Assembly (NCBI RefSeq): GCF_947623445.1
Contig: NC_135242.1
Location: 4,650,001-4,714,000 of the forward strand
Source of the DNA: Clavelina lepadiformis
Lineage: Eukaryota; Chordata; Ascidiacea; Aplousobranchia; Clavelinidae
Length of the DNA stretch: 64,000 nucleotides
Direction: 5' to 3'
The translations under genes were made by a program, and so were the position numbers. A model generated the notes under the pieces. The model was given only the letters and a program-made list of their open reading frames with translations, searched no databases and had not been told where the DNA came from. The stretch's first letter is position 1, and the number at the start of each line of letters is the position of its first letter. Shown here one piece after another: positions 5,173-63,400 of the stretch.

Positions 5173-5211
5173 TAATTTATTATTTAGGAACAATGCAGAA
5201 ATTTTAGACAC

Positions 5212-8200
5212 TGATTTCTACCAGATATGCAGTGGACAGGCTACTTGTTGTGCTGAAAATTAAGCGCCGAAGGATGCCAGCCTGACGTCACTGAGATAAA
5301 CAAACAAATTATTGGTTATGTGATAAAGACTGCTTCCAAGAATCAAACATAACAAAACCATATAAATAGCTAAACCAGTTACAAATCTTTACGAGAAAAA
5401 CAGAAGTCCTAACTAAGGCAAGTCTCAAGTTTCCGCTCGATTAAGGTTTAATGTTAGAATGAGTCAAAATAAAGTTGAGAAGATTAAGTAAACTTTATGG
5501 CGCAATTAAACGCCATTGATGCGCGTATGACGTCATATCGCAAACAATTTATCCGATTAAGCAGTACGATGTGGAAGCTGGTGGACTTGAAGTATAATCG
5601 TTTTTGTTGGAGCTTTTAATTGGAAACGGAAATAACTTTACCGAAACGACTTACGCTTTGAAAATAATAATATTTCCCGACCTTTTTTTTAAATTTAATG
5701 TAATGAGTAGCCCCGATACATACTTAATCGAATGGTCAGTAAAGCATTAAATTTCATCAGCTTATTTTGAACTTTTATGTTTGTTTCTTTTGGTAAATTA
5801 TGTTTGAATTTAACCGAGTAAGTATGCTTTAACTTTCTGCCGCGCAAACTCACACTGACGGCAATTCTACACAGATATATTCTGCTTTTTTTGGTCGATA
5901 TTTATTGAATCATTTCACGCAATAAGCTCGCTTGTCTGCTTAGACTGGCTGTGTGCTCGCTTAACTGCATTCTGATCTAAAATATGCCATTTTCGATGAA
6001 CTCTCTGAATCCCTAAAAGCCAAGTTGTGTTAATCAATTTTTAAACCGCGATATAAAACACAAAACTTTCTTTAAAAAGTCACTTTTGTCTCTTTAGCCT
6101 GGTAAGTCCTTTCTGTTTTTTTGGATTGGCATCAACTACAAGCCAGGCCTAAACAATTTAATGAAGTATTTTATTCTGAAAAACAACTCGTATTCAACAG
6201 TTCCTGTATAAGCAAGCCATGCCGCAACATGCCCAGATTCCGAAATTGAAAGAAAACAGCTTGAACAATGAAATACCCGACAAAAACTTCACTTTGCTTT
6301 CAGGCACCAGGTCTTGAGTAAGACGAAATTCACTGGTAAACAACTAACTTTTACGCACTTAAGCAACATCTACTTAAAATTTAGTGAAACGTATCGGGAA
6401 ATCCCCAAGCATAGCCCGAGACGGCGGTAGTTTATGATGTATGAAACGTGACCAGTTAACATCGTCCGTGATACGCTGTAGTCACGAAAGTGCATTTTTC
6501 TGGATTTTCGGTCAATAGTGTCTGCGTATGCTGTGTTACTTGCTCTGTGATGTATACTTAAATTGTGAGTTTTTTACTCCAACGTATCGCTTAAAACGCG
6601 GAATACACAAAATCACGGTCCTTATCACGGTGCTTATCACGGTCCTTATCACGGTCATGATTTGTCATAATTGGTTCATGATCATCACAACGCAACTGAA
6701 TTACTGACGTTGTTTTACCAAACTAAGGAAAACTCTTTTTCAAGAAAACAAACTTTTCTGAACGCTAACAAACTCTGTTTTAGTATAGGCCTATTTAAAT
6801 AAATTAAATGCTCTTCACGAATCTGCAAATTTTTGTGATGAAAATACGAATCCACAAACCAAAATTACTTGCAGATATCCAAAAAGTTTTGACACACTTA
6901 TTTGATCACCATAATAACATACAAGCATAACTTTGTCTAGAAACATGAACGGAAAAATGGTAGAATTTAGGGAAAAAACTTTAAAACGCTTCTCTGAAAA
7001 AATCACAATAATGCAACGTTCGTGAGAATGGCAGAGGGTCAATTGTTACGTAAAACTTTAATACATGTGACACTGTTTGCAGCATTAATCTTATTTTGCG
7101 CGATGATTCATAGAAAACTTTTATGTAACGTTTAAATAAGTTTTAATACGTTAGTTAAGTTATGTTCGGTTTTGCGGTGATACTAGGAATAATATCTCAA
7201 CCAGCACGTAATACAACAAATATACGAAACACATAGTAATCCTCTAACTATATGCGGGAAAACTACTGCTTTGAAATACCTTAAAATCGAAAGTATACTT
7301 CCTATCTGTTGAAGACAGTTATGACGTCTTTTCAGTGACCTATATACCTAAGGGTCATTTAGCAAAATACTCTGTTATCGCAAAATTACGGGGCTGCGTA
7401 TTGCGGAAATAAATAATCCGACTTGACGGAATTCTCAAAACATTTCCAAGAATGCAAAGAGTAGTTGATATTGTGGTCACCGTTCGATAAATCGATGCAA
7501 ACTGTAAGCTTGTAAGTTGTGTTGACGAAAATGAACAAAATTATAGTATAATAAATTGCAAATTACCGTCAAGTATGTCAAAGTAATTGACTAAAATGTA
7601 TTGCTTTCGTCTGACTGCTGGATCACAAGCCAATATAGTAGATGAAGGAAAATAGCATTTCGTTTTGACAGATTTTTCGTACAAGTTTACACAGACAAAA
7701 TTATTTTCGATTAAAGCAAAATTTCTTGAACTTCATCCCATGTAAGTCCTGGACCTTCAGTCGGATTTCTCTGACATGGCCACAAATATTAATCGACAAA
7801 TTTCTAATGATTTCCGAATTTCTGTTTCATTTGCAGTAATTAATGGAAAGAAAATATACACCTGAACAATAGTATGCAACCAAGATACAAAGCTTAGCTT
7901 AAAGCTTTTCCAACTGTGCTAATTATATAATTGCCATTGTTTGTTGATCGTGTAGCACTGTAGCTCATATTTAGCCAGGGTGGGTCTGAGTAAGCACGTT
8001 TGTGGTATTTTTTTCATTGAGTTGAAATTATATTAACTTTTTTATGATAGGTATCTATAAAGGAATTAACTACAGTCAGTTTGGGAATAAAACTGTAACT
8101 TTTAACTCCATAACTTTGTTTGCACAATTTTATCGGTGTTTAGACATAAAGTTTAATTTCAAGTTTACCGTTTCGCGGTCTACAGGTTTCGCGTATACCA

Positions 8201-17977: not shown

Positions 17978-18058
17978 ACGGTGGATGTTAGCAAAATGAT
18001 ACAGTTCGAAAAGTTGTAAAGCAAAGAGCAATACGTTGTCAACAAAAGTTCTCCAAAA

Positions 18059-18873
18059 ATGGCGAAATTGTTACTTTTTTCGATCTGCTTGCTCTGTGTC
18101 TTCGGCTTAACACTCAGCCAAGGTGGCTTCAACACCTTTTCGAATGTGAACAACGGCGGTGATCCTGATGCAGAGTTAACTCAAAGGCTCTTCGGTTTGT
18201 TCGATAACAACGACGGTAACTCCACAGGCAACAGCCCACTGTGCATCTTTGCACTCGCATCTCTTGGACAAAACGGACAACTAGGAGGAGGACAGAATCT
18301 TCTGCAACTCCTTTATTACTGGAACTCTTTGACTAAGGGGAATCTGTTCGAAGGAGACGTTATGGAGGTTTTGCTCCCCTTCCTCTTCGGAGGTCAAGGC
18401 GGACTCGGAGGCCAAAATATTTTCCAGCTTCTTCCTTACTTGACCGGCGCGAATGGAGGGGGTTCTTCAAACGTTCTGAGTCTTTTTAGCCTACTAGGTC
18501 CTCAAGGTAGATTCGGCGGGGCACAGAATCCTTTTCAGCTTTTTCAAACCCTGCAGCTGTTTTGCGGAGCAGATAACCAATTGTCTCTCCTTCAAATTCT
18601 TCCTTTGCTGGGAGGAGGTGGCTTTGGGGGCTCGCAAGCGTTCCAACCTTACAACCCGTTCAGTCCGCAAGGAGTGGGTTCGAATCCCAATGTAAACAAC
18701 AATAACAACAATAATGTTATTCCAGGTGAGATATCATTGTTAAACATGTCTTTAATTATTTTTGAATTTGTGTGACGAAATTAGTTTAACGTTTAGCGCA
18801 GTAACTGTTTTAGTTTAAGTTCATATCAACTTTTAAGAAATTTTGTTTTGTTTCAGGGCTATTCGGAAAATGA
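18059..18873 (+). CDS. Secreted Gly/Asn/Gln-rich protein, two exons
   Basis: Exon 1 is 18059-18725 and exon 2 is 18857-18873 (donor CCAG|GTGAG, acceptor TTTCAG), giving 227 aa and a stop just after LFGK. Residues 1-20 form a clear signal peptide ending at LTLSQ. The mature chain has no known domain. It alternates Leu-rich hydrophobic blocks (RLFGLFD, QLLPYLTG, LSLFSLLG, LQILPLLG) with Gly/Gln/Asn linkers, has two isolated Cys, and ends in a PYNPFSPQG segment and a poly-Asn run. The next gene downstream is a paralogue sharing the QLLPYLTG block. Extracellular structural, adhesive or self-assembling roles are plausible but inferred from composition only. A promoter TATA (17970) and AATAAA (19068) bracket it neatly. 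Confidence 0.85.
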
Positions 18874-19823: not shown

Positions 19824-19920
19824 CGGATAGCTTGGCGAGAATATCATTTTGCTCACCATCGTTCAAAAGAGTGCAGTTGAAGCAGTGCAGTGTTGGTCTT
19901 GTGCATTCATTGGCAGCAAC

Positions 19921-22900
19921 ATGATCAGGGATCTAGCTTTCTACGTTTTGCTTTTAACCGCTGTATCACTAGCATTGGCTCAAGACGACACCAGCACGGG
20001 TGACGTCAGTGACAGTGATGATGGAAACGTTACCTCAAGATTTTTCAATCTCCTAGGACCGTCAAATGGCGGAGGAGGCCTGGGGAACCTCTTTCAGAAC
20101 CCGTACGGCTTGCTCAGCTTATTCCAGGGTGCAGGCGACGAGCAAAATCTATTGTGCTACTACTTGTATACTTTACTCAGTCAATCTTACGGAGGAGGAC
20201 AAGGGCAAACCGGGAGTATACCGTGGCAGCTTTTACCTTACCTCACCGGCACCCAAGGTGGAAATCCTCTAACTGGTGGAAATCCTCTGACTGGAGGAAA
20301 TTCTCTTCTTCATTATTTTTCGCTTTCTGGCTTGACTCAACAAGGAGGAGGTCTAAATAATCTTCTTTTTGTGCTTCCGCTCATTTCTGAAATCTGTGAA
20401 GACGTAAGCTTGCCGTTTTTACCGTTCCTTGGCGGTTTGGGTTCACAATATGGTCAAAACCCCTACTCGCCACCAGGTTACAACCCGGGATACTCAGGTG
20501 GACAGAACCCTTATAGTAAGCATAATAATCATGCACTTACAGTATATAAAGGCTAATAACGAAAATGGTTGCCGGTGTCGTGCCAAATTTGTTTCGGGCA
20601 TTGTGACGTAAGAATGTCAAATGACTCAGCGCAATTCTTTCGAGCTAAAACCTTGTAATCTGGATGAGTTTGTGTTTATTCTCTTGCTGTTTGTAAGTTG
20701 TTCTTGAACTCAAGGGCCATCTACGTTGAGTCGTGCCCAAACTCTACGTCACAATGCGCGGAACAAATTTGGCACGACACCGGCAAATAGATGAATGGAA
20801 TAGAAAATATGATATCTTTGTTGAAATTATCTGCACAAAGCAAATTGTTAAAGGTTTATGAAACTGTTAGGCCTGCTGTAATATATGTTAGCGATAACTT
20901 TTGGACATTAACTTGATCTTGTAACTTTACAAAACAATGCGCACCACATTGGTGCCGCTAACGTCGCCTGTCATTGTAATTACTTACGATGTTACGAATG
21001 TAAATGCATAAAAATCCGTATTTAAATATATTTGTATTAAATAAATATTTTGTCTAAACAAACATAGCAAGAAATCAAAAAATTGTTTTGTAAATTTTGC
21101 AGATGCTTAAATCGATTTTATTGTTTTGCTTAGATCCCTATAACCCTTACAACCCTTACAACCCTTACAACCCATACAACCCACAAGGCGGAAACCACCT
21201 ATTTGCACCTTCTGGACCAGTTGCTAACCCTCACCACCGTAAGTTAAATGAATATAATTGTATAATTACTAATTAGCAAACATTTGCTTTGCACTGCTTT
21301 TCGTTTGGTGACGTCTACGTTATTTAAGTTAAGAGTCGAAAATTGTTGGGTTTGTCAGTGGCGACCCAATGAAGAGTTAAATGCTTGTATTTTCCCAGCT
21401 TGCAGTCAGCCCTGCACCCCGCCCCAAACTTGCCAAGTTAATTCTGTGACCGGGCAGTACCATTGCGCTTGTCCGTATGGCCAGCTCTATTGTGGTAAGA
21501 AGTGCGACCAGTAGATTTGTGGTTAGTGTAACTTACGACGATCACTGGTGTCTTTGTAATGCATTTGTGTCTGAACTTTTCCAGACTTGTTTTAGGATAG
21601 ACACGCACTACGTCGGATATGACAGGACTTGTGCATTTTATTAAAGGCACTTCTAAGGCCATCTTCTCATATAAGCAGCAGCTAAACTACTTTTAAATTT
21701 CAGGTCAAAACAACCAATACCCTCCTCCGTCGCCTCAATGCCCGTTTCCTTGCTTGCCTCCAAAAGTTTGCCAATATAATCAACTCACAGCACAATCCAA
21801 CTGCGTTTGCCCTTACGGCAACCCTACTTGTGGTAAGAAATCGGCAATTATCAAGCTCGATTTTTGAAGGGTGTCTTTAAGATCACCAAGTTGATTTTAC
21901 GCAAAGTGTCTGGTGGAATGCAGACACTTGCATCAGTAACTCATCAAATCAAACTTATCGCTAATGTTCCACCAAACGCTACAATCGGCAATTATAAAGC
22001 TTTAGTAACAAAAATAATTTCAAGAAGCAAATTTTTGTTGCTTCTTGTCTTGTGGTTACTGTTAATTAACTGACGTAGGTTATAACGTTTCGCGCATATG
22101 TCGCAGCGCACGGGTCATTTTACAAACTCTTTTCATGAGATTTTGCGTAGCATGCGCGTAACAGTTTCCATATTATTTTTAAATCTTATTTTTAAGTCGA
22201 AATAATAATCCTCTTTGCTTCTCACTCTTGTCGAGAAAATTTTTATCAATTTTCTCTTTATTTTGACATCAAAACCGCTGCGTAGACCCATTGTTTACAC
22301 CAGTTGTTCCCAAGCTTCTTCAGCTTGTGGCACACTAGAAAGATTATAAAACGCTCGCGGCACACTTACAAGAGAAGAAAAGTTGCTTTAAAAAAATTTA
22401 TTTTCACATGTTAATGCGATGGATGTGCTTATTGGATGGACATGTGCTTTTTTATCAGCTATTGAAGCAGTTAGAGCGCTTTTAAGTCGCATATGCTTGT
22501 CTGCATCATGTCTTATTTTAAATATTTATACAGTTATTTTCCAAAATTTCAAAAAGATTCGCGGCACACAGTTTGGAAATCACTGGTGTACACCCTGCCT
22601 GTACACCCTGCAATCCGCTGTGTAGACCGATCATACCATACACCCTGCTCGCTATTAAAACAACATGTAAAACGGGCTCGTTGCATTAGACTTTAGAGGC
22701 TTTTCAAGCTTTTACCAATCCCCCATTTATAAACCTAATTTGAATTTCAGGTCAATACCAAAATACTTGCATCCAACCTTGTCAATATCCAAAAATTTGC
22801 CAGAATAACCAATGTGTTTGCCCACTCAACAATCCAACATGCGTAAATGGTAAGATATGTTCCAGCTGAAATTTTGCCACAGTTTGAAAATGGTGCTTTG

Positions 22901-38963: not shown

Positions 38964-40173
38964 CAGAGGTCGGGAACCTATGGCTCGCGAGCCATATATG
39001 GCTCTTTTGATGATGGCATCTGGCTCTCCGATATAATCTAAGCTGGCACTTCTTAATTAGCATCTTAATTATCAATATTGCTGCAACTTTTTTTGTAACT
39101 TTCCATAACGTAACAATCCTTTCGTAACAATTATGCAAAACAATAGATGGATTCGTAACAATTGCGCTAATGCCAGATTGTCAGCCATATTTCGGTAACT
39201 TGAAACCTTGAACTTCTTTAGCAAAGTATTTCAGTAAATCGAGTTGTTTTTTGAGAGATTATTTTATTGAACAGAGTTTTGCTATTGCAGTAGATGAGTT
39301 ATTTATTACGGATATTGAAACAGGTCGTCTGTTACATTTTGAAACATTGAAAGCATTTAAAGATGCATTCATAGTAAGCAACCCTACTCAACAATTTAAT
39401 ATCCAGCAGCTGGTAGGCTTCACAACTAATCTTCTGCAGTCATTCAAAGAACGCTCTGAAGAATTTCGGGAGCGCACTTCTCTTTTTAAGTTCATCACTC
39501 ATCCGCATGAGTGTGCTGTGGACGAAGTCGACTTGAGTTACATCCCTGGTGTTTCCGTCAGAGATTTTGAGTTAGAAGTTGCTGATCTGAAAGCTTCCGA
39601 GATTTGGGTGAACAAGTTCAAGTCACTGAATGATGATTTGGAAAAACTTGCACGACAGCAAGCAGAGCTTGCTAGCAACCACAAGTGGACAGAAATGAAA
39701 AAACTTCAACCCGTAGACCAGTTGATTGTCAAAGTCTGGAATGAGCTGCCTGTCACGTATCACACACTGCAGAGAGTGTGTACTGCTGTAATGACCATGT
39801 TTGGCTCCACGTACGCATGTGAGCAGTCGTTCTCGCACTTAAAAAACATCAAGACCAACCTACGATTTCGTTTAACTGATGGAAGTCTTAACGCTTACAG
39901 TATGAAGCTTAACCTCACCAAGTATCAACCAGACTACAAAGCCATCAGTAATACCATGCAACACCAGAAGACGCATTAACTGTAAAAAGCGAGTTACTGA
40001 AGAATAAAGAGTAAATTCACACTTTTACTGTTGTCTACAATTGTTGGTTTTGCTTTAAAATGTACATGTTAATTGCCTTAAGTTTAGAAAAATATCATAT
40101 GGCTCTCACGGAAATACAATTAAAAATATGTAGCTTTTATGGCTCACTTTAGCCAAAAGGTTCCCGACCCCTG
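38964..40173 (+). mobile_element. hAT transposon, 1.2-kb internal-deletion derivative
   Basis: Terminal inverted repeats CAGAGGTCGGGAACCT (left) and CAGGGGTCGGGAACCT (right, reverse-complemented). Both are followed by GGCTC/GAGCCATA motifs typical of Charlie-like hAT elements. A perfect 8-bp target duplication CTATACAG flanks it (38956-38963 and 40174-40181). It carries only the C-terminal part of a transposase, so it cannot be autonomous. The intact duplication and open frame suggest a fairly recent insertion. Confidence 0.92.
39251..39979 (+). CDS. hAT transposase C-terminal part (GTF2IRD2/ZBED-like)
   Basis: A 242-codon open frame ending at 39979, inside the hAT element; it stays open about 17 codons further upstream and has no ATG at its start. 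The last ~75 residues are the hAT dimerisation domain: MFGSTYACEQSFSHLKNIKT, then LRFRLTDGSLN. Before it come SFKERSEEFRERTSLFKFI and a WNELP segment, as in the GTF2IRD2/ZBED5/FAM200 transposase clade. The N-terminal BED finger and the start of the RNase H-like core are missing, so this is a deletion product and not an active transposase. It has no premature stop, so it is either young or kept open by chance. Confidence 0.85.
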   Translation: MRDYFIEQSFAIAVDELFITDIETGRLLHFETLKAFKDAFIVSNPTQQFNIQQLVGFTTNLLQSFKERSEEFRERTSLFKFITHPHECAVDEVDLSYIPGVSVRDFELEVADLKASEIWVNKFKSLNDDLEKLARQQAELASNHKWTEMKKLQPVDQLIVKVWNELPVTYHTLQRVCTAVMTMFGSTYACEQSFSHLKNIKTNLRFRLTDGSLNAYSMKLNLTKYQPDYKAISNTMQHQKTH

Positions 40174-44868: not shown

Positions 44869-47800
44869 GGTACTATATTTTAAAATTTTAATAAGGTGAA
44901 CTTCACTCTCTTGCACCAGCTAACGGAAGTGTTAACAAATAGATTGAGTCGCATGTATGTCGTTGTGTGAAAGAGTATTATTGGCTGTTTGTCCATATGT
45001 CATTGCTCCACAAGTTGTACTCAGTATTAGAGTATAAAGATATTTAATTTCAAGAATTCAAGTTGGTGTTGTAATAACCCTTCGAGTCGACTCAAAACTC
45101 ATTTTCTAGAAATTTGGCTTGACTTGTACTTTAGGAAACAAAAACCAACTGTTTTATGACAAATTACAATTGTCTGAGAAAATTATTAATAAACAAGATT
45201 AAATTGGACAGGGTTTTCATGAACGGCAATTGGCAACCAACTTGACACAACACACAGTGTGACGCCAACAGATTTTATGAAGTTTAACTTACATTAAATT
45301 AATTTGACTCGAGGAATAACTTGCCCTGACTCAGGCCAAAGAGCTATAATTTATAAGTCAAATTGACTTATAACAAAAATTTTCTTGCTTAGAAATTTGA
45401 ACGCAGCATATTCACTTAAATCGAAAGTAGAAGTCTTGGGAATAGTATCGTTTTCCGCGCCTGAATCATTCAGGATGAATGCGCGTATGTTTGGTCACGC
45501 ACTCAACTCGACTAAAGACATTGAAAAATTAACCCCGATAATCTCCACACCGGTTTTACCCACATTTATTCCAATCGAATTGCGTTGTCCCCGGCCCCGG
45601 GTACTGTGGTAAATATAGTTTACCCATGAGCCATACGCTATGATTCTGATTCTTCGGCTGCTGCTATCTGTTCCGTTCGTAAAAATGTGTTGCCTTGTTG
45701 GTAACTTTTTGCAAGCTACCATGCGTGTGAAAGTTTCAGACTTACGATGTGTACGTATAGCCTACATGTTTATTAACAGAACATCAAACACCGGCCATCA
45801 TGGCATAGCAATTTCCATACAAAATCGATGAAGATTTTCAACGCAAGTCGGGCCTAATATATCAGCTGGAATGCAATGTCCTGTACTTGCACAAACACGA
45901 ACAAACGTTAGCACAAGGTTAAAAGAATGTAAGCCATACCATAAGACATCGAATAAATGAAAACGACAGTTAAGGAGTCTCGTAGACCACATATCGTACT
46001 CGATTATAAGTTATTCAACCTTATCAACTTATTTATCGCTAAACTAGACAGAAAAATGAATACAAAAGAAAGCATTATATCACAACCACTACAGCAAACC
46101 TAGTGGGCTATCTAAATGCAAAATAAACGTCTAATCACTTTCTGTTAATGTCAATAGAATGGAAAAACTTTTAAACGTTTCTTAATATTAAAGCTTTTTA
46201 GTCGTTAAGTTATATGCCACTGTACTACTATTGTATCAGTTCCACTAGCCGCCTACTTTAAACAATTAGAAGAAGAATTACTGCTGATTGCACGCTGCTT
46301 CAAATTGGCCATAGTATTACAAATATTCGTTACAGTGTTTCCTCGAAGCGTACATTCAATAAGTCACGGCAGGTGCGTAATGCGCTTAAGCGGAAGTAAG
46401 AACGAGAATGTTTGCCGACGCTAAATGAAAAATATCTTGGATTCATGAAATTTTACCTTTAAATAAACAATTTCTAGCATTGAACGTTATTCCTTCATTA
46501 ATGTTAAAAAAAAGAATTTCCTACAAACTAAAAATTTATTAGCTTGGAAAGTCATATACAGTAGATGATGGTTAATGAGGTCAGCTAAACTAAAGATAAT
46601 TTAGTGGTAAATAAAGGTTTAACAACTTTGGATGCGGTCATTTTTAAACTTTTGATCAGTAACCCGTCAAAATGCACTAAATTTGCAAATTTCAGTCATG
46701 CATGAATGATGTTCGCAAGGCAACAAAACCAAACTACGCAGTTTGAGAAACACAGAAGATCATTGGTTTTCATACCAAACTTGACTATAATGTGATATAT
46801 CAGGGGTATGCTACCCGTACTGTTTCAAAAGTGGGCCGATCGGTATTCGTATTCGTTTTTTTTTTTTGCGATTGAATATGGGGGCGAAAAATATGGTAGG
46901 CTAGCTTAATCACAATTGTGATTGTACATGCAGTTGTAGGTTAGGCCGTAACATTAATTAAGTTGCAGTTTTTGAGGAAGTGGCAGAATGGGTTGGCTAA
47001 GCCTACTTTTATGTGCTATGGTTTAAAACATCTGAACGTTGTCAAGAAAAATATCAAAGTTACTAACGCGTGTTTCTAATTCTTGTTAGTTTGCTGCACG
47101 GCATTTGCAATTTCCATTTATAAAGTGTTTTGGTCGTTTGATATGTAGAGTAGAACGTTATCTGGTTATGTCATACTACCAGCGATAGTTTCTTCATTGG
47201 CTAATGTAAATTTTAAACGTACGTTCGATATGTTGTGTAAGCACTGTTATAGGCTAAGGTTGTGTTATTATGTTGTATCAGTGCCAAAAACGAAACGTCA
47301 GACACGACACATACTTGTTTTTCTATTTAGGTTTTGTTTGGTAATAAATAACGACGCGCACGAAGCTAGTTTTCCCTTTTGTTTTGTTTCACTCATTGAT
47401 AAAGTTTCATGGGTGACTGACAATGTGGAGTAGTGTAACCGGGCTCATTCTGAAGCTTGCTATTTTAATTCAATTAAACTCAATAACTTTGTAACTCTTG
47501 AGGATTCCCATTAACAAAAGGACTTATTTTCAGCAGGCATTTGTTTTGCTTGATATGTTGGAATTTGTTAACTGACTTTTGAACAGCATTAAGCAATACT
47601 TTAACTGACAAAGAATTAATCTGAAAAGTAAGCAGTTTTTTCTCTGGTGTGTATATGGTTTTTTTTCGCACTAGTGTTAGACTTACTAGCCTGTGATATA
47701 AGTTTGATGAAAATCAAGTTCGACAGCATATATTATAAAGTTGCCTAACATTTAGTGTTAGTAGTTAATTGCTATTATGCTTTGACAGCTGCCATTTCAC

Positions 47801-49087
47801 TTTGCAAAGCATGATTACAGGTTTTTGTAGTTGTTTATTGCTGTAAGTTTATCATGTTTTGTTAAAACTTCACATCAGCAGTTATCAGGCTTTCAAGCTT
47901 AAATCTTGCAATATACATAGATAGAAGAATTCAGTTCACCATTGAGTGTATTCATGCATTTAATTGTTGGATCATAATAGTGTCCAAAAACAAAAAAGAT
48001 ATTGTTTCAAATAAAGTCCTGCATAGTAAGCCATGTTGGAAACGTTTTCTCAAGTTCAAAGAAGATCAATGGTGGCACAATAGTCATTTACAGATTTCAT
48101 GTATGTTTCTTTATATGGTACGTAAAAGGTTATCCTTTCAGACAGACTTGCGGCAGTGTAGTAATGTATAACCATCTTCATAATGAATGTATTTTTGGTT
48201 CTTGAATATTTGTCCTAAGTTTTCACAATGTATAACAGTTTGATCATGTCACAAAGTTTTTTGTTTACATCATTTGTATGCCACTTTGGAGCGGTTTAAA
48301 TAGTAATAATAGTAGAAGTTTATCACGCCACACGATCAGAAAAATTTTTACTCAGACTAAAGACGGTGATTAAAGAAACAATCTGAAGAAACTGAACTTG
48401 TAACATCAGGAATGTTTTTACATGTTAATTTTTGTTGAGCGTTTTGACTTGTTATGCGGTTTATTTAATATTGTAAGCAGTTATTCTAATCATGATTATG
48501 TGGTGAGGATAATTTTTAGATATAACTGGTCTTAGGCTATATACCTTTGTTGCGTCTGTCCAAGTTTTTCTCACTAATTAAATTTTAAGTGGAGTCATGA
48601 AATAAAACTTGACAATAGCTCGAAAAAGCAGGTGTTTTCTGTTGTAAACAGGATGTCATGTAATTTCATAATTATCATGTGACAGTATATTCTTACCTAG
48701 GAGTCATATAAGAGTGAAGCAAATCTATTGTCCTGATGTCTTTATAGCAGCTACTATCCTCAGGTTTCTTATTGTTTGCAATTGAGGTTTGAAGCCACAG
48801 CGAGTCACGGAAATCTGGTACGGCTGGTGCTCTTATTAGCAGTCGACCGAAACAGGCCTAATTGAAATCATTCCATTGTTGGTCACCTATTTTTTGTTAC
48901 TTAATTTCTTGTCTTAATTCATGTCAGATAGTGTGACCAGCTTATTGACTAGGGTGTTGTTTCTTTCAATCGACCAAGTTTTCAAGGACGACATTATTAT
49001 TTGCAGTAGTTAGGTGAGACATAACTTCGAGATCTGTTCTGACAAGTCGTTTGTAATTTTCTGTTGAATACAGAGCCCAGCCACATA
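44869..49087. other. Upstream region of the cyclase-LIM gene
   Basis: Four kilobases without a supported coding exon. Because a splice acceptor (GAATACAG) lies just before the start codon of the next gene, a 5' untranslated exon or spliced-leader addition is expected, but I cannot locate a promoter. Short frames at 45385-45722, 47197-47433 and 47980-48205 look random. Confidence 0.45.
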
Positions 49088-52000
49088 ATGACTGGTGAAA
49101 ATGGGTAAGTCTTGCAGGTGCACATAGTTTCAATATATGAGAACTCAGTGGCATTGAACTTAATAACACCATATTGCTTATAATATTATTCTAAACAAGG
49201 TTACTATTGTTAGAAATACAGCTTTCACTTTGTCAGTCAATATTACTTGTAATTTATTCATATACAGTAAGGACAAAATTTTTTTTTCACTTTTTTGTAG
49301 AAATAGTTATTCAAATGGAGATGTGAAAGATGCGGCCAAGGAAAAGATAATGAACAGCAGTGCCCCATTAAGTATCCTTCCATCAGAAACCAAGGTAAAC
49401 AATCGTGTGCTTATGAATTGTTTGTTTGAATTCTTTCTTCATTAAGGCTCGTCATCTCTTGACTAGTTTGCATAAACCTTCACTGCATATGTTCAATTGT
49501 TCATTTTCAGCATGTAAGCTGTATATGCCTCATATTTGTAATCTATTCTTTTCTTCATACCTGAAGATTGCATTATGCAGCGTCAGTTTATGTACGGCTG
49601 ATTTTTTGTTGTTCAGATTGTTTTATCACCATTAATAACAAAAGGTCGAGGCCCCAGTGGTGTTGTGACCATCGTATCTCTACGCATGTGTGGTCTGGAT
49701 GAATTGTGGCATAAATGCTCACAAACTGTAGTGTCCAGGTGTGTAAATCTTATCTTGTGATATCACAATCATATCACACGTATCGATATTAATTCTGTGG
49801 TATTGATTAATTTGCACTTTTATTTCTCCATTTTTTAAGTGTTTTACTGGAATACCGTGAAATAGTTGATCGATGCGTAAAAGATTTTCATGGCTTTGAA
49901 GTGTCATCCTACGAAGATCAATTCCTCATCGTCTTTCAGAAGCCCTGGGATGCTCTAAACTGGTCTGTGGAGTTAAACAAATATATTTTTAACTCAAGTC
50001 GTAGTTTTATACCACGTAAAAGCCGTTAAAACTTATGTTTCTAAAAATAAGTTCTTTAGAAGTGCAAAGAATTTTTGTTCTCATTATTTCACCAGAGATT
50101 AAAGGGATTTCATTGCACATTTTTTTGTTGACTTGCTTCTCATAAAATTGTCACTTTCTTTCACGTTTCAGTTGTCTGACCATGCAGTCCGCCCTAGCAC
50201 AGACAGTGTGGCCAAACGACGTCCTAGCCTGCCAGTCTTGTGTCAAAGTAGAAGAGAAAAATGTCCATGCCGGAAGGACAGTTGTATTTAACGGTCCAAG
50301 AGTCCAAGTCGGCGTTACGAGGTAATTGGACGCAATCCACAGACGTTGTCTGACTTAGTTTTCTTGTTCGAACTTCCGAAACGCACAGTTTAGAATTTGT
50401 GGTCAAATTAGGCCCTAGTAATGGAGTATAGAATTTTTCGTAAGCAAATCTTTCGAGTTTTTCTATGTGTGGCGTTATCCGGTCCTAACCCTTCGCTAAT
50501 CTATGTAAATATTTACTCTTGCCTGGACGTTCTGTTTAAATGTCTATGAAGCAAGAGGTTTTAATCAATGTTCATCCGCCCGAACAAATCATCAATATCA
50601 CTTTAATTTCCATCTATGTACAGAGGAAAAGTTCACTCGGAGTACGAATACTCGAGCGGTAACACCAAGTACAGTGGAACCGAGCTTGACCTCGCCGTTG
50701 GTATTGCCCGGATTGCAAAAGGTACGTCTAAATTCTAAATGTTAACCCGTGGCTGATGCTGCCAGAGTTGTAGCAAGTTTGTTCCCGTGTATTGCTTGCC
50801 GGTAAATTTTTTATTCCATTTTAGCTCGAATTTATGAAAACCTTTTTTTCCATTTTCCCCAAAACCCGACATGGAAAATTTTAAACATTTTTCAATGGTT
50901 GATGATTTTAACCGTTTTCCGCATTTTATCCCTTGTCGGGCGAAAGCGACGATGGTATCGTCGTCAGAGGCTTCTATTGATTTGGAGAAGTCGTGTATTT
51001 AACCAGCGTGCTCTTCACCTTTTGCCTCGTATTTGCTTAGGTGGACAGATTTTAGTAAATACCACAGCCTGGACAGAGATACAAAGATCTCAATTGACGC
51101 CGTGTATTCACAACGATACGGGCAGACAGAAAGTGGATGGCAGCGAAAAACGAGTCCGGCTTGTCGAAGTGAGTAAACTTAAACACCTCCCATCTTTAAT
51201 ATGACGATTGATTTTATGATAATTTCCCGATAAACGACCAAACTGGGCTGTCTAGTCGGATTGGCGCAAACGGAGAGCTTTTTTGATCCAGTTTGACATT
51301 TCATGAAATAATGACATATAAATGTATAACGTATAAACAAAGTTGAAAGGTAATGCGTGGGAGAAAGTAACACCATGCGGAATCGATTTTGTGCGAGCTT
51401 TCTTATGTCGTCATTTTAACACGGCATATCCATCACTCTTAATTATACGCGCGAAAGCGAGGCGCCGTTTTAATCTAGTGGGCTTAGCGATGGCGTTTTC
51501 TCAGCGGGGAGTATGGCGATGGTGCCCAAAGTTTTAAAAGTATGGGTGACATTTAGCTATTCTAGTGCCTTAAAATTTCTGGTTAAAAACCTTGCCTTAT
51601 CGTATATTTGCTGTGTTATTTATTTCCTGGCTTTTTTGACAGTTCGAGCTTGGAAACTTGATTGAACTAAGCGCCAACCGTTTCACACGATGGTCGCAAA
51701 AACCTTTCGAGTTGGGCAGGCCTGGTCTAGAACTTGGCGAAAAAACTGTCCGAAACATTGCTCGTTGCCACATTACAGAAAAACGTTTCGCAAACTTATT
51801 ACATCACGCATTAACGGAGGGTAAATTCAAATCGTTCGCAGTTTTGCAATCTTTTACTACGCTATAAATTTTGCGAAGGGGTTCTCCAAAAACCGTATAA
51901 AATCTTTCTCGTGCTATTCTACACGTTGTTATTAGCGTTGCCATATATGGGCAGTTTTAATGACCTAGTGTTGATGCTTTATTCAGCTTCTACCAGCCGC

Positions 52001-54620
52001 CTTGTCCGAGAGGTCGAAATGGTTTGGAACCTGCTGTAGCAACTGCGGAGATAGAATTCGCCCAGACCAAGGCTACATTAAGGTAAAGTATGTTTTTATA
52101 CAGCTGTTAATAATGGTTGGCTTAAGTGGGTTGGCATTATGGGTCATAATGAGACAATACCTGATGTGGTTTTTTGAAAAATGGCGAACTTAATGGCGCA
52201 ATTTCACAATACAATACACAATATCACTGTCATTATGTCACTTATAAATGCAAGCAGGCAATGAGCCGTACACGTAATTTCAAATTTATGACTAGCGTTT
52301 TCGTTTGTACCGGATTCGGGAGCATATTTTATGGGCAGGGAACGTTTCCCTGAAACACGTAAACCTGTCAATTTTTTACCAAAAACGGAAATACAGAAAC
52401 GTTGCGTGTGATTGATGATTGAATTTCACAAATGATAGGATGCCATTTCAGTCCATTGTTGGTTAGATTAGTTTCTGAGGAATAGAATAACAATACATTA
52501 TCTTTACAAGGCAGACGTTTATACCTATAGATCATAAACGTATGACGTTATTTTCTGTGAGAAATCACTGTCGTTTGCGTAAATCGAGCGCCCGCTTTAT
52601 CAAAACTCTAAAATTATCTCCAATCTAGCTTCTTCGAAATTATCTTCGATTTTTCACGATAAGTGGTCAGGTATTATTGCGAGATGACGAAAATAGGTAT
52701 TCAAGTAATTGAAAACGTTTACGTTTATAGTCAATTTTAATGGAGCAAAATTGTCACTTTAGTAACTCAGGCGGGCTTGATATAAAAGCCTAGAGGTTAC
52801 CAGTAATCGCTTGTTATTTATGACTACATATTACGCAATCCAGTTGTTTATGAGAAAAGATGAACCGTTAATTGGAGACAAGATTAATTAGTCCTTTAAT
52901 CTCAATTTGATTTAACGTTGAAAAAGACCTTGATCTTGTTATGTTTTTTAGGCGCTTGGTCGACACTGGCACTTGAAGCACTTCAGGTTAGTCACGTGTA
53001 TAGATTACTTGATGCATTTCTTCTTACTCCATCTTCAGTTTTTTTTGATCTTCTTAGGAATACACCTTTGTGGCAATATCCGCAAATTAGAATGATTTCG
53101 CATATATCTGATATACAGTCTATCCTACTGTATATGTATCTTCTATGTTACTTCGATTGCTTTAAACCAGGCGTAGTTCATGTGATTTCCCCTGCTGATT
53201 AATTCTAATCGGAATCGAAGTTTGTGTAACAACCGTTACAATGCTTTACCATTTACAACCTATAAGTATCTCTTAATACGATCTTTGCATCTTCATACAG
53301 ATGTTGCCATTGCAATAATCCGTTAATGGACTCGTATATCGTAAAGGACGGAATGCCTTATTGCCTAGGTAAGCTTGGTTTGCGACAATCCCACAAACGA
53401 GATCTTCGGCTGTGCTTTTGTTTTCTCAACTTCTCAAATTTGAACCCAAACAAAGTGTCGGTTTTGGTAGATTAGCAGATGGACAAAATTATTGCTTTTA
53501 GTGACCGTGTTCATTTGGTTTAAAGCGCAAGATAAATGCCAGCACCATTTTGATGAACCTTATCAAATGCCGGCGAAAGTCCATAACTGATTTATTAAAT
53601 GTCGCCTTTGATCCATCCAGTGACCTTAGCCAGTGGTTATTATTTTTACCTCACAGACGACTTCTTCACTCTTCACGCGAGAACCTGTCACGGATGCGAC
53701 ACCATCATCACTGGTTCCTACATCGAAGCTATGTCCAACTACTGGCACCCTGATTGCTTTGTATGTCAGGTACGGTATCGATTAACTGGGACTACACTTA
53801 AGTGACGGAGTTTTTAAGATTGCTGTTACAAAGGTTTGCTATTTGTTTGTCAAACCACGATTAATATGAAGTCTTATTAAAAGTTTGAGCTCAACATCTT
53901 ATCGGTTGGAAATTCGTTGAAAGCGTTAGTTGGAGCAGGGCAAAGTTAAGGCTTTTTATTTTTTGCCTACGCTATGGCGAACGAAATTTTCCGGAATGAT
54001 TCATCTCCATTATTAGCTCGCTCTATAATAGTCAGCTTTTTGCAGACACTTTTGGGCTAAATAAATAGGTTAGTGTACAAGCTAAGGGGCTGAGTAATGT
54101 TTCCCGATGCTGGATGTTTTCGAAAGAGCTAAGTGAATTGGATTAAGTGGCTTAAAATGCAATCATTCAAATCATGTTTTGTTTCAATGACAAAAATAAC
54201 AAAGATTAATTTTTCCAGAAATGCAGACGACCACCTGAAGGTAGTGAGAATATATACGAGTTTAACGCTTTGCCCTTCTGTCTAAAGGTGGGTGCGTGTT
54301 GATATAGCATTTAGGGATATTTTTATAGATGGTATCACAGCCTAATAAAGTTAATGTGAAAATAATGATTTACACACATCAATTTTCAATATCAACAGGC
54401 TTTTTAGTAGTGGCATTTATTTCTTCCTAACTACCAGCAGATTTGGGAGCACTAATATTCCGTTCATTTTATCCTATTTAGTTTAGTAATTTGTCTCCTT
54501 AACAATACACAGTGCTACCATGAAGTAGCGAGCACAATGAACAGCGCCCGCACCAAATCCCAGAACAAAGTTATGAGAAGCGATGACATCCCGAAGCACC
54601 ACGCGGTGGTAAAATCGTAA
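49088..54620 (+). CDS. Class III cyclase-like domain fused to two LIM domains, 14 exons
   Basis: Exons: 49088-49104, 49301-49394, 49617-49738, 49840-49971, 50172-50321, 50624-50721, 51041-51168, 51643-51820, 51997-52082, 52952-52986, 53301-53368, 53657-53769, 54219-54287, 54513-54620. All junctions are GT-AG and in phase; total 1,398 nt, 465 aa. Residues ~47-215 follow the order of a class III nucleotidyl cyclase: GPSGVVTIV, HGFEVSSYEDQFLIVF, GPRVQVGVTRGK, then YSGTELDLAVGIARIAKGGQ. Key changes: the first metal Asp is Arg60, the transition-state Asn is Asp194 and the Arg is Gly198; the second metal Asp (Asp104) remains. Residues ~216-310 are an unassigned linker. LIM1 ligands are C320/C323/H342/H345 and C348/C351/C368/D371; LIM2 ligands are C380/C383/H400/C403 and C406/C409/C428/C431. 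No signal peptide or membrane span, so cytosolic. Probably a catalytically dead cyclase on a LIM adaptor. A misjoin of two genes is unlikely given continuous phase, one start and one stop. Confidence 0.85.
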
Positions 54621-54834
54621 TTTATTCTCCGTTAGATGGTGTAAATCACACCCAACCATTTCCAGTCTTGCACTATTTTGTCCGCTTGTGCGCAAATAGT
54701 TTCAGCTGATACGTCTTGTTCTTTTTGGTGATGACAATATCATTTTTGTTTCGTAACATTATCATAATTTATGTCTGATTATGTTTGTGTGGATGCTATT
54801 CTGAACAATCAAAAACGAACGTAATCATCGTAAG

Positions 54835-54840
54835 AATAAA
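54835..54840 (+). terminator. Polyadenylation signal of the cyclase-LIM gene
   Basis: AATAAA 215 bases after the stop codon at 54620, followed by mixed AT-rich sequence. Confidence 0.5.
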
Positions 54841-57800
54841 ACATGATTTGCCGGACTTACGCATGTGTTCAAATCTATGCCGATTTGACTAAAATGTCAA
54901 TCAATATCATGTTGTTCCACCGTTTTACTTCTACCCTGAATTTATCGCAACCTTAGTTTTCTGTGTTTCTTTTGTGCTTATTCAATCTGGCTTATTATAG
55001 TGCTTCCAACACTCAGTATACTCGTGCTTTCAAAAAGATTTTACATGATTTTGTTTAGACTGTAGTGGCTAAGTATTTGTAATTCCAAATCACAGTTTTG
55101 GATTGGTAAATTTTTAGTCTTGTGTTAAGTATTCTTCTGAAGAATGACTTAAAACTGTTTCCTCTGTGAAGTGTTAATTTCCCGTGCCTGTTAATGTAAG
55201 AATTTTTATGCACAGCGTACGCTTTTTCTTTTGGCAAAAAAATATCGGTTATTCTGTTCTATTTATTACAACCGTTGTGTCACTTGTGAGCTTTTTAACC
55301 TTTCCACAGTGTTTCTGTTGTCGATTTATGCTTCAATCATCATTTCTTTCGAACCTAAATCAACGTCCAGCCATACAAAGCATAATATACTATAGTACCA
55401 GACGCTTGTGTTGTGTCGTCATACAAATACAATAGCCTGGTTCTCGATCTGTTGTTGATTAAATGATTGATTTTTTTTTAATTATATCGGAGGAGTTCCC
55501 AATTTTTTTAATCTTTGTATTTTTCTTCGCTTCTTGGTTGCTTTTTTGTTCTTATTCCACATTTTGAAATAAATATATCGTGTGATTAAACTTGTGGGCT
55601 ATAAATGTATTAAGACGACAAAGAATAACTGCATTAATATGTTTAATTAGTACCCTGCGATTGATAATAATTTAAACAAAAGTAACAGCTATTGCAACCT
55701 TTTGCGTAGTTAATATGCAAAGTTTGTTATTCAAAAATGATTTGGACATTTTCAGTTTTTGATTTGGCAAGCTCTTGACATGGAAAATGTTGCTATACAG
55801 TATAATATGTAAAAAGTCAACTCAAAGACGTTTGTTTGCGGAAAATCATGCGTTGGTTAAATATGATTTTTAAAATTATTTAACTTATAACTACAGTACA
55901 ACTAGTTATACCTGTGATCGTGAATCAGTGTTGTTGAAAAAAAGGAAGTAAAAGCTGGTGGCATTGCGGCACGCCACACCACGTGCCGCTGCAGTGATGC
56001 GTGGCATCTGTTATCTTGGTTTTGCTGGACTTTGTTTTCACAGCAAATCACAAATGCCAACTACATGCAGAAAGGAATGGTGGCTTCAGACTGAAACGTC
56101 CGTCTATGCAGGAATTGTCGACGGGGAGGGGGTGGGGAGAAGGGAGGGGTCATTTAATACCTTCAGCAAAACATTAAAAGTTTATCAAAGGAATAGCGGA
56201 AGAAAAACACCGAAGTAGAATGTGACATAGCAGGCGCGGTCAAGTTCAAAATTACTCAAAATTCAAAATTAATTAAAATAATATCCCGCAGGTGGCGGTA
56301 GAGTGTAAAAAAAGCATTGGCACAACCAAGCCAATCAATAAAGAAATAAAGCCAAATCAGGATTAAACCTGTATTGCTGGGGCAGCTTCAAATGTACCAA
56401 TTACCAATCTAACTAAAGTATCAATGATATGAATGCCATTTCTTGAAAGGCATTTGATTTTGATTTTTATGACATTTGGTTTAATTCTTAACGTATTTGG
56501 TTCAATTCCTACGTTGAGTTCATTGCAACTTTGGGTTTTCGGTGTTTGCAGTACAGGAAAAGTTTTAAAAATGCAAATAAAAGAGCTGGAAATGTGCGTA
56601 TATTTTAAAGAATAAGGAAGCTGTCCATTTTTGTGTTATCACTAGAAATATTGTACATATTATTGGAAAACATTTTTATGAATTTTTTGCCAATCCTCTA
56701 TAGACCATATATAATTGCGTGCTGACACCTCCTGTTCAACTGTTATCATAATCGTGACGTCACTAAGGTTCAACAAGAAACAAACAATGCTGTATAACCA
56801 AACTAGTCAAAGAATGATCTCAGGGTTAATTAACGAAACCACTTCCTTATTGGAAGCCCTTTATCTCCCTTTTCGAAGCAATCTTGATAAATTAATGAAT
56901 TTGCACAGCTGTGTTGTTGTCCGTAACCCTGGTTTTTGCATGGTAAGCTTCACATATTCGTAAGAACGTTTTATCCCGGTGGCTCTTGAAGTTTTCATGC
57001 TTAAGGATTGTAAATAGTAGAAGAAACGTTATACCGATCGGTAGCATAATTTTGTGCTTCGTGTATATATCTACAACAAACATAAAGGTTACGGAGTTAG
57101 AATTACATGCCAGCACTACATGTATTAGAATTTTGCATCTGGTAGGTTTGCTTAAAGTCTAACTTTAACTCCCCGGGAATTATTGCATCGTTATTCACTG
57201 TGCAACAAATGCACATAGAAATGTTAAAAACTCACCTCCTGTTAAAATCAATATTTCAGCAGTGGCCTCTCGTCTACGGTGCAATTCGAGCCAAAAAGAT
57301 GTGTAGAGAGATAAATAGTAAAACTAAATTGATCACAAGGAAATTGACGATTTCTGAACCTTAACACTAGAAACGTTGGATTGGTTGATGCTATCTCCGC
57401 TTTCTCTGGATACTGGTGATTTGAAGTTGTGTCTGGCGTTGAAACAAGACTTTACAATCTTTGAAAGTTGCCTCGTTTTTATTCAACAGTGTTTTACGTG
57501 ATCCAGTTGTTTCGATTTTGATAATGACGTCACTGTATAACATTTGGCTAAAGAGGGATGACTTGAACCCGGTCACATTAAATGCAAATTGTGACGTCAT
57601 ATTGAAAACTCGAACACGAAATTGACGATTACTTTCAGGTTTCTCCATTCTATTGCTTTGCACGACGCCATTGACATGAAAGGACTCAAAATCATTGTAT
57701 TAAAACATAATTTGTTATGGCATAGACTTTACAACTGTGGGATAAAAAGCAAAAGTAACTTGTTGGGGGACCTGCAAAAAAGTTAACACGGCCTGGAAAT

Positions 57801-60493: not shown

Positions 60494-63400
60494 ATGTTAT
60501 TCCGAAAATTTCTGTTTTTCATCAGCCTGTTTGAATATTCATTGATTGCATACGCTCAAGGTAGGTGTAACTCAATTAAGTCATTATGAACAAATTATAA
60601 GTATCCTCACTGCTGTGATTTAAGCCGGTGAGTTTCTTTCAAAACAAGGCTTCACAAGCTGATTAACCAAAAAACAGCTTTAATTGTAAAAGTGGATTTT
60701 ATTATTGAGTAAATGTCGGTGTAAATTTGGATCAGTCAGAGTACACATGCCTCAGTTTTACTCACGCGCCTACAAATATGTCTAAAATGTCGAACAAGGA
60801 CTTGGTCTATGTCTCCATCTGCTGTTTATACAACAAAGAAACAAGCGCCGGTAATCACTGACCTTTAGCCTTTATGCGCCGTCGATTAGAAGATTATCAT
60901 AATGAGGCAATACAGCTCTTCAACCTTGACGACTAACAATACTATGCCTATGTATGTGCCAATGAAGTGAGATATAAAATTCAACCCTATTTCTTGTCGT
61001 AACAAATTCTAATTGTTCGATTTTGAAGTGGTATTTTCTATTATCAGACAGGATTAGAATTTGCCAATAACACAAAATACAGAACCGTTTGAAAAAAGGC
61101 TTTCTTTAAGTATAACTTTTAGATATACAGTAGACGACATAAACCGTGCCTAATATAGTATAACTTATTCTAAATTTAAACCCCTGGGCAAAATTTGTAA
61201 ACTTAAAGACTTTTTGTAGCACAGTTCTTGTAAACTTATCGTTTTTTAGCATGTAGGTAACGAAAAAAAAACGCTATAACTAAAACCCTTACGTTTATTT
61301 AGAAGCTCTCGCCTTTTAAAAGTTCTTCCAATTACGGAAGGTTTCTTGTTGTATTGATTCTTCAAAAGTTCTCGTACAGCGTTCTTGACTCGACTACAGC
61401 GAACAGGTGTTTGGGGTTTTGGAAATGCGTTACCGGCTCTTCAAAATTCAATACAAAATATGCCGATCCGCAGCAACTAAAGCCTACTACTCGGAAACCG
61501 ATAACCCGTCAAGGAAGTGCATTACGTCTGACGGAAACTGAAAACCTTTAAGATGGGACACATATCATGTTCTCGCTAGGGGTTGCTTCGTGATGAGATT
61601 ATTTGTCAATGGTTTGGGCATTTTGATGACACTCTACGTCGCCTGACAAAGCCTTGACATTTATGGTGTGAGAATTCGCAAAGATATTGTCCAATTTCGG
61701 GTCACATCTTTATTTAAATGCTTCATTACGTCATGTTCTGTGCAGATATGTGTCGGCAGCGGCCAATAGATGTCGTGTTTTTGTTGGATGGTTCCCGGAG
61801 TGTTAGAAGCAAGAATTTTCAAGTAATTAAAGATTATGTGAAAAACTTTACCAACATCTTCCAAAATATCGGTCCGAGTGACGCACAAGTTGGCATAGTA
61901 AGTTAAGATTGTATTTTGAACATAAATACGTTGCAAAGGATTTGTAACAGTTTGCCATGTTGTTAGCGCAAAAACATCCAGCTGTTATTGAATTGATTGA
62001 TCTGTAAACTGTTCTCTTCAGGTTCAGTTTGGGAGCGTAGTCCGTGAAGAAATCCGTCTCGATGAGCATATGGACAGACTAAATCTGTTTGGTGCAATAG
62101 ATAACATTGATTACATGGAAACGGGTAAGCTACACCTCCATAAAGGAAGCTGTGAAAGCCTGTAACAAATGCATATCCATAACAGATTGTTGTTTTTTGC
62201 AGGTACTATGACTGGTGAAGCTTTAAAATATCTTGTGACACAAGCTCTATCTGCTTCACACGGCGCGCGCATCGATAATCCTCTTGTCCACAAGGTGGCC
62301 GTGATAATCACGGATGGGAAGTCACAAGATTACCACCGCGGCACAGTGACCAAGTGGCAAAGAAAAGCAAAGGTTCGTTTAACTACAAAGAGGGCGTTTA
62401 CAAACAGCAAAACCAAGAGCATGTAGGTGCTGGCTAAGAATAGTATTACGAGAATAACCAAATTGGAAAATCCAAAAGAAAGCACGACGTCATAACGCGC
62501 AACAGCCACATACTACTCTAAGAATATTCTTATAATGAATACTTATGTAATAATAATAATGATAATAATAGTAATAGCAATAGTATTAATGAATAGAATA
62601 AGTTTCACGGCAACTTTTGTAAGTTATCGAGTTATTTAATATTTGTTTATTTTGTGACAAGTTGTAGGCCTACAGAGGTCTCGAAATAACATGGAATACC
62701 TTAATGTCCTTAATCTGTAATTACTTTTGTTGTTTAACGAAGAATATTTTCCAGGAAGCTGGAGTAGAATTGTATGCGATTGGCATCGGTAGAAAAACAA
62801 AGGACGCAGAACTTCTCGAAATCGCGTCCGAACCAAAAATAAAGCATAAATTCCACACGAGGAACTTTGAAGGAATACAACAAGTCCAGCTTTCTCTGGA
62901 CCACTTGGAACTTTGCGGTACGGCATGCGCTGGTCAATACTCGAACTGGCCAACACATGGTGCAGAGTAATTGAGTAGGAAACAGGATAATCTTCGTTTT
63001 GATTGAGTGTTAAGATTTTTCAGATGATAACGAGTGTGAAGATGACGACAAAAATGATTGCGAGCAGATTTGCGTCAACACAGAAGGCTCTTACACTTGC
63101 GAATGTCGCGATGGCTTCACTCTTCAGGAGGATGGGAGAAGTTGCATCAGTAAGCAAGAAAAGAGGAGCCAATAAAATGAGCTCCCAATGCACATGTACT
63201 CTTTATGCGTAAATGATATCATGTTTTTATTGCCAAGGCAACGATCCGTGCATCTTAGCTCCGTGCTCACATCGGTGTTTCGATCTTGGAGAAGGGAGGT
63301 ACGAATGCAGATGTCCTTCTGACATGATCCTGGATGAAAGTCAAATTAACTGCCAAGGTTAATCGCGTTCTCTGTACATTCAACTCCTTTTTCAAGTTAA

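What the first reader, a model, noticed from the sequence alone, without database searches (positions are those of the whole stretch)
49088..54620. A cyclase-LIM fusion protein that appears undescribed
Fourteen exons join in perfect phase into one 465-aa chain with a class III nucleotidyl cyclase-like domain followed by two canonical LIM domains. Class III cyclases are known fused to receptors, kinase-homology, BLUF, LRR or TPR modules; I recall none with LIM domains. LIM domains usually dock to actin-associated or transcription scaffolds, so this would bring a cyclic-nucleotide-type fold to such a complex.
Basis: partly seen in the sequence, partly recalled or inferred. Interest (0 to 1): 0.92.

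Follow-up and report, generated by a model that had tools for sequence, protein, structure and literature searches.

The report
Sea-squirt dead-cyclase LIM adaptor gene
A sea-squirt gene appears to join a cyclase-like domain that has lost most of its catalytic residues to two paxillin-like LIM adaptor domains, which would make it an unusual scaffold protein rather than an enzyme, pending transcript proof.

Summary
Fourteen exons at 49088-54620, split by 13 GT-AG introns, join into one stop-free chain, 462 aa in my model. Pfam finds Guanylate_cyc at aa 52-216 (E 6.9e-5, above its cut-off) and two LIM domains (1e-22). The genome is Clavelina lepadiformis, an ascidian. The cyclase domain looks dead: against trypanosome GRESAG4.3, five of six catalytic positions are replaced and only D104 remains. 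It is detected by GRESAG cyclases but not by the first domain of the animal's own soluble adenylyl cyclase. The LIM pair is closest to paxillin. Tunicate operons often create false fusions in gene models, but here the LIM half has no in-frame ATG ahead of LIM1, so a simple two-gene reading fails. No transcript evidence was available, and the linker exons have no independent support. A tandem acceptor 10 bases upstream would give a LIM-less protein. I read it as one gene for a pseudocyclase-LIM adaptor. Its presence in other animals could not be tested; limited paper searches listed no such protein.

The parts
49088..49104 (+). exon 1 (ATG at 49088-49090)
   Evidence: GT donor, in phase; an acceptor-like ACAG ends at 49073 just upstream, compatible with a 5' UTR intron or spliced-leader trans-splicing (read)
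49301..49394 (+). exon 2
   Evidence: AG/GT borders, in phase
49617..49738 (+). exon 3, start of cyclase homology domain; R60 at the place of the first metal Asp
49840..49962 (+). exon 4, cyclase homology domain; S100 at the place of the base Lys; D104 retained; unusual donor GTCTGT
50172..50321 (+). exon 5, cyclase homology domain
50624..50721 (+). exon 6, cyclase homology domain; K184, D191, G195 at the places of catalytic D, N, R
51041..51168 (+). exon 7, end of the Pfam-matched cyclase region (to aa 216) and following residues
51643..51820 (+). exon 8, linker (no Pfam match in the stretch from aa 217 to the start of LIM1)
   Evidence: if not spliced, stop codon starting at 51865
51985..51996 (+). 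tandem acceptors, AG at 51985-51986 and 51995-51996; only the second keeps the LIM frame
51997..52082 (+). exon 9, first zinc ligands of LIM1 (C317, C320); no in-frame ATG
52952..52986 (+). exon 10, LIM1
53301..53368 (+). exon 11, LIM1
53657..53769 (+). exon 12, end of LIM1 and first half of LIM2; its 3' border lies at the same codon and phase as an intron of the animal's paxillin gene
   Evidence: read by eye
54219..54287 (+). exon 13, LIM2
54513..54620 (+). exon 14, end of LIM2, basic tail, stop TAA 54618-54620
54835..54840 (+). AATAAA poly(A) signal
   Evidence: the only AATAAA/ATTAAA in 54622-55200 searched; in 51821-52000 the call found two TATAAA variants and no AATAAA or ATTAAA

Best explanation
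One gene encodes a 462-aa intracellular adaptor. Its N-terminal half is a class III cyclase fold that has lost five of the six metal, base and transition-state residues needed for catalysis (a pseudocyclase). I infer that it now works as a dimerisation or nucleotide-sensing module, because class III cyclase folds pair head to tail (recalled knowledge). Its C-terminal half is a tandem LIM unit of paxillin LIM2-LIM3 type, which I infer docks the protein at integrin-actin adhesions or a similar scaffold; in paxillin, LIM2 is named the major determinant of docking (section heading, PMC8007706). The protein would thus join two LIM pairs in one dimer, or bring a nucleotide-responsive switch to an adhesion complex. 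Shown: gene structure, domain matches, residue losses, LIM affinity. Inferred: single transcript, dimerisation, location, function.
For: In-phase 14-exon chain with 13 GT-AG introns. Both domains above Pfam cut-offs. GRESAG4.3 match 3.4e-6 in PDB, 30.0 bits against a best shuffle of 7.9. Five of six catalytic positions replaced (the roles of these positions are recalled). Both LIM domains fit the zinc-ligand pattern. Best PDB LIM match is a paxillin chain, 7qb0, 5.7e-20; best LIM match elsewhere in the genome is the animal's paxillin gene, 43% over aa 331-404, E 4.6e-13. The LIM frame has no Met between aa 123 and aa 353, which lies inside LIM1, and no ATG in its open stretch 51975-52082; the only ATG-bearing, phase-compatible exon in the 176-base gap would be 7 bases long with donor GTTTTA and a 43-base intron. 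No AATAAA or ATTAAA in 51821-52000, one AATAAA at 54835.
Against: No transcript, no orthologue, no structure. The linker has no Pfam match, and codon usage does not support exons 8 and 9. Two TATAAA poly(A)-signal variants lie in the gap. The upstream AG of the tandem acceptor would give a LIM-less protein. Five possible alternative first coding exons (up to 300 bases, GTRAG donor, right phase) lie in 46001-51820, one of them overlapping exon 1, so a LIM-only transcript cannot be excluded. Adhesion docking is carried over from paxillin on 43% similarity only, and the protein has two LIM domains, not four.
Confidence: 0.6

Rival explanations
1. Two adjacent genes, a cyclase-like one and a LIM one, perhaps in an operon or linked by rare read-through, falsely joined in the model.
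For: About 20% of Ciona genes lie in operons, whose genes abut and are often wrongly predicted as fused (PMC2760879, passages). The Botryllus fuhc locus was first described as one gene and proved to be two, 227 bp apart, with rare joining transcripts (PMC3691228, passages). The break would fall in a 176-base gap here. Two TATAAA variants lie in that gap. The linker has no independent support.
Against: Exon 9 already holds the first LIM1 zinc ligands but no in-frame ATG; a trans-spliced mRNA starting at 51987 or 51997 could not make an intact LIM1 from an ATG. No plausible start exon in the gap. No AATAAA or ATTAAA in 51821-52000.
Confidence: 0.15
2. One gene with two products: alternative use of the acceptors at 51986 and 51996 (or read-through to the stop at 51865) gives a LIM-less cyclase-like protein and a full-length one.
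For: Tandem AGs 10 bases apart; the first gives a frame ending after 'MVWNLL'; read-through of exon 8 ends at the stop at 51865.
Against: No expression data; a frameshifted RNA may simply be decayed.
Confidence: 0.2
3. An active cyclase recruited to LIM-dependent sites.
For: PF00211 above cut-off; D104 retained.
Against: Five of six catalytic positions replaced, with neither a complete metal pair nor the N/R pair, so it fits neither half of a two-domain enzyme (roles recalled).
Confidence: 0.03

Closest known systems
Class III nucleotidyl cyclases, trypanosome GRESAG4.1/4.3 type (PDB 1fx2, 1fx4)
   Same: Best solved-structure sequence match, aa 48-217 (E 3.4e-6 for 1fx4); 37 of 168 aligned residues identical in a MAFFT alignment
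   Different: Five of six catalytic positions replaced; no receptor part found; LIM tail
Paxillin (PXN class), LIM2-LIM3
   Same: Best LIM match in PDB (7qb0, 5.7e-20) and in the own genome (43%); that own-genome stretch is LIM2-LIM3 by its place in the four-LIM gene (read); one shared intron position and phase
   Different: Two LIM domains instead of four; no LD motif seen in the chain by eye; N-terminal cyclase fold; the other four introns of the LIM region do not coincide
Soluble adenylyl cyclase ADCY10 (own copy in L036; human-type structure hit 1e-43)
   Same: Class III fold in a soluble animal protein
   Different: The own ADCY10 first domain as query does not detect this domain (-1.0 bits, below the best shuffle 5.4)

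Membership tests
Class III cyclase homology domain (PF00211) | Profile match above curated cut-off | tested here: met
   23.0 bits whole chain, 25.5 bits region alone, cut-off 21.9
Active class III nucleotidyl cyclase | Two metal-binding Asp (recalled) | tested here: not met
   R60 and D104
Active class III nucleotidyl cyclase | Transition-state Asn and Arg, base-recognising Lys and Asp (recalled) | tested here: not met
   D191, G195, S100, K184
Active class III nucleotidyl cyclase | cAMP or cGMP synthesis | not testable with these tools
   needs an enzyme assay
LIM domain (PF00412) | Eight zinc ligands with canonical spacing, profile match | tested here: met
   two stretches, E 1e-22; both fit the ligand pattern
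PXN class (paxillin) | Four LIM domains after LD motifs (recalled) | tested here: not met
   two LIM domains; no LDxLLxxL in the chain, read by eye
Known animal cyclases: ADCY10 | Close relationship of the cyclase domain | tested here: not met
   own ADCY10 C1 as query -1.0 bits
Known animal cyclases: transmembrane adenylyl cyclases, receptor and soluble guanylyl cyclases | Close relationship of the cyclase domain | tested here: inconclusive
   no such chain among 8 PDB matches up to E 10 and no cyclase locus among 25 own-genome matches, but the latter search is exon by exon and no tree was built
Fused single gene | One transcript across exons 8 and 9 | not tested
   no RNA data at hand

The most novel reading that the evidence does not exclude
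A cyclase fold of the trypanosome (and, by recall only, fungal) kind, of which no second copy was seen in this genome by an exon-by-exon search, survives in a tunicate as a dead domain captured by a paxillin-type LIM pair: a new class of LIM adaptor with a pseudocyclase switch at adhesion sites.
Probability: 0.25. Interest if true: 0.65.

Novelty: new variant of a known kind. Interest (0 to 1): 0.45.

Why it matters
If one transcript is confirmed, it adds a domain pairing to the LIM proteins and a pseudocyclase to a chordate. It would raise a testable question: whether a dead cyclase fold can serve as a dimerising or nucleotide-sensing part of an adhesion scaffold. If the transcript evidence shows two genes, it becomes another example of tunicate gene organisation misleading gene models.

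Tried and rejected
Active cyclase: rejected on catalytic residues. Simple two-gene operon: made unlikely by the missing start codon. Recent copy of another cyclase of the animal: no cyclase locus among 25 own-genome matches to the full protein; 13 lie in this gene and 12 match only the LIM half. That search is exon by exon, so distant copies could be missed. Another cyclase-LIM gene in the same genome: none seen; apart from this gene, the nearest pair among 44 PF00211 and 40 PF00412 matches is about 308 kb apart on C8 (both lists are lower bounds). One search did not list this gene's own cyclase exons, so a second degenerate copy could escape. Prokaryotic relatives: 13 pattern matches, none confirmed. 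Viral contigs: none. NCBIfam: one weak match, 13.7 bits against a cut-off of 800. Codon usage: little power, 5 training ORFs and 1267 codons, not all certain to be coding throughout; LIM exons 9-13, whose coding nature is not in doubt, scored from -1.4 to -0.1. Shared intron positions with paxillin as proof of descent: by eye one of the five introns in the LIM region coincides, so not used as proof.
Full report
What is there. The window lies at C3:4650001-4714000 of a genome of 209,060,895 bases in 95 contigs. Contig C8 is 19,509,797 bases, exactly the N90 scaffold length of the published Clavelina lepadiformis assembly (PMC10884593, parts 1 and 2 of 3 read). The five contigs whose length I saw (C1, C2, C3, C8, C9) fit its chromosomes 1, 2, 3, 8 and 9 within about 0.01 Mb. 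The totals differ a little (210,089,204 bases in 102 scaffolds in the paper), and C1 is 5,500 bases shorter than the paper's longest scaffold. I take the host to be this colonial ascidian. At 49088-54620 fourteen exons with 13 GT-AG introns join in one frame to a 462-aa chain. A first model with exon 9 starting at 51987 broke the frame; the finding's 51997 is the start that works. The finding says 465 aa; I did not find the source of the difference.

Domains. Pfam places Guanylate_cyc at aa 52-216 (23.0 bits, cut-off 21.9, E 6.9e-5) and two LIM domains (E 1e-22); the cyclase region alone scores 25.5 bits. Against solved structures the first 304 residues find GRESAG4.3 (3.4e-6) and GRESAG4.1 (4.6e-4), then weak matches to Ma1120 cyclase entries and 3mr7. 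Eight sequences passed E 10 in all, one of them unrelated (a photosystem subunit), and none is named as an animal adenylyl or guanylyl cyclase. As a control for the search, the animal's own soluble adenylyl cyclase domain (L036) finds adenylate cyclase type 10 at 1e-43. With GRESAG4.3 as query the real region scores 30.0 bits, the best of 2000 shuffles 7.9 (1245 reported), the reversed sequence 2.8. With GRESAG4.1 the real region scores 23.5 against 8.7 for the best shuffle. With the own ADCY10 domain as query the real region scores -1.0, below the best shuffle of 5.4. The domain is thus a real but remote class III fold, nearer to the trypanosome type than to this animal's ADCY10. The animal's other cyclases were not compared one by one.

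Catalysis. In a MAFFT alignment with GRESAG4.3, 37 of 168 aligned residues are identical. The first metal Asp is R60, the base Lys S100, the second metal Asp is kept as D104, the base Asp is K184, the transition-state Asn D191 and Arg G195 (the roles of these positions are recalled from work on mammalian adenylyl cyclase). Neither half-site of a two-domain cyclase is complete, so I call it a pseudocyclase.

LIM half. Both LIM domains fit the zinc-ligand pattern. The best solved match is a paxillin chain (7qb0, 5.7e-20), then 'LIM and senescent cell antigen-like' (PINCH) chains. The best match elsewhere in the genome is C1:22298158-22298382 (43% over aa 331-404, E 4.6e-13), which is the animal's paxillin (8e-40 to 7qb0); by its place in the four-LIM gene it is the end of LIM2 and the start of LIM3 (read). 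The intron after 'CFVCQ' here and 'CFVCR' there has the same place and phase; the other four introns of the LIM region do not coincide (by eye). A section heading of PMC8007706 states that LIM2 is the major determinant of paxillin docking to focal adhesions (abstract and outline seen); LIM1 of this protein aligns with paxillin LIM2.

One gene or two. This is the main risk. Satou et al. [quoted passage not shown] The Botryllus fuhc locus was first taken as one gene and proved to be two, 227 bp apart, with rare joining transcripts (PMC3691228, passages). Gene-prediction errors are also reported to create false domain architectures more widely (PMC3927609, passages). Here the possible break is the 176-base gap 51821-51996. 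The LIM frame is open upstream only to 51975 and holds no ATG from there through exon 9; the first in-frame Met after aa 123 is residue 353, inside LIM1. The only phase-compatible ATG exon in the gap would be 7 bases long with donor GTTTTA and a 43-base intron. No AATAAA or ATTAAA lies in 51821-52000, but two TATAAA variants do; AATAAA lies at 54835 behind the LIM half. A distant alternative first exon is not excluded: five candidates (up to 300 bases, GTRAG donor) were found in 46001-51820, one overlapping exon 1. Codon usage was uninformative, even for the LIM exons. I put one gene, with or without alternative splicing, at about 0.8 and the two-gene case at about 0.15.

Uniqueness. In this genome no other locus pairs the two domains among the matches scored, with the limits named under Tried and rejected. 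No eukaryote proteome was at hand, so distribution in tunicates or beyond is unknown. Prokaryote and viral scans gave no relative. Of ten paper searches, six were aimed at a cyclase-LIM protein or cyclase architectures. I saw only the listings, which show a small part of the papers found (15 of 205, 12 of 22, 12 of 1573, 12 of 1163), and none listed named such a protein. Koch et al., who sort 265 LIM proteins from nine proteomes into 14 classes with 59 left unclassified, do not use the word cyclase in their main text (PMC3305314, passages); their tables were not read. A likeness to fungal adenylyl cyclase is recalled only and was not tested.

How it may work. The best-supported reading is an intracellular adaptor in which a dead cyclase fold dimerises or senses a nucleotide and a paxillin-type LIM pair docks the dimer, perhaps at integrin-actin adhesions. 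The gene structure, domain matches and residue losses are shown; the rest is inference. The tandem acceptor offers a possible switch between forms with and without LIM domains, untested.

Noticed in passing
window 39212-39976 (+): 255-aa open frame with a hAT transposase dimerisation domain (PF05699, 26.3 bits, which scanned 10 of the 27 frames of 95 aa or more listed).
   Followed up: no
window 18020-18772 and 19831-20553 (+): Two neighbouring open frames of 251 and 241 aa with signal-peptide-like starts and Gly/Gln/Asn-rich bodies, no Pfam match; by eye they look like a tandem pair of secreted proteins, not aligned.
   Followed up: no
window 4315-5217 (-): Open frame with the start of a rhodopsin-type 7TM receptor (PF00001, 33.5 bits).
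   Followed up: no
window 62668-62967 (+): Exon-like frame with the end of a VWA domain (PF00092, 24.1 bits).
   Followed up: no
L036 919-2175 (-), C2 7.76 Mb: A single 418-aa open frame carries the first catalytic domain of soluble adenylyl cyclase (ADCY10) without an intron.
   Followed up: partly
window 51985-51996: Tandem splice acceptors 10 bases apart; the upstream one would end the protein before the LIM domains.
   Followed up: partly
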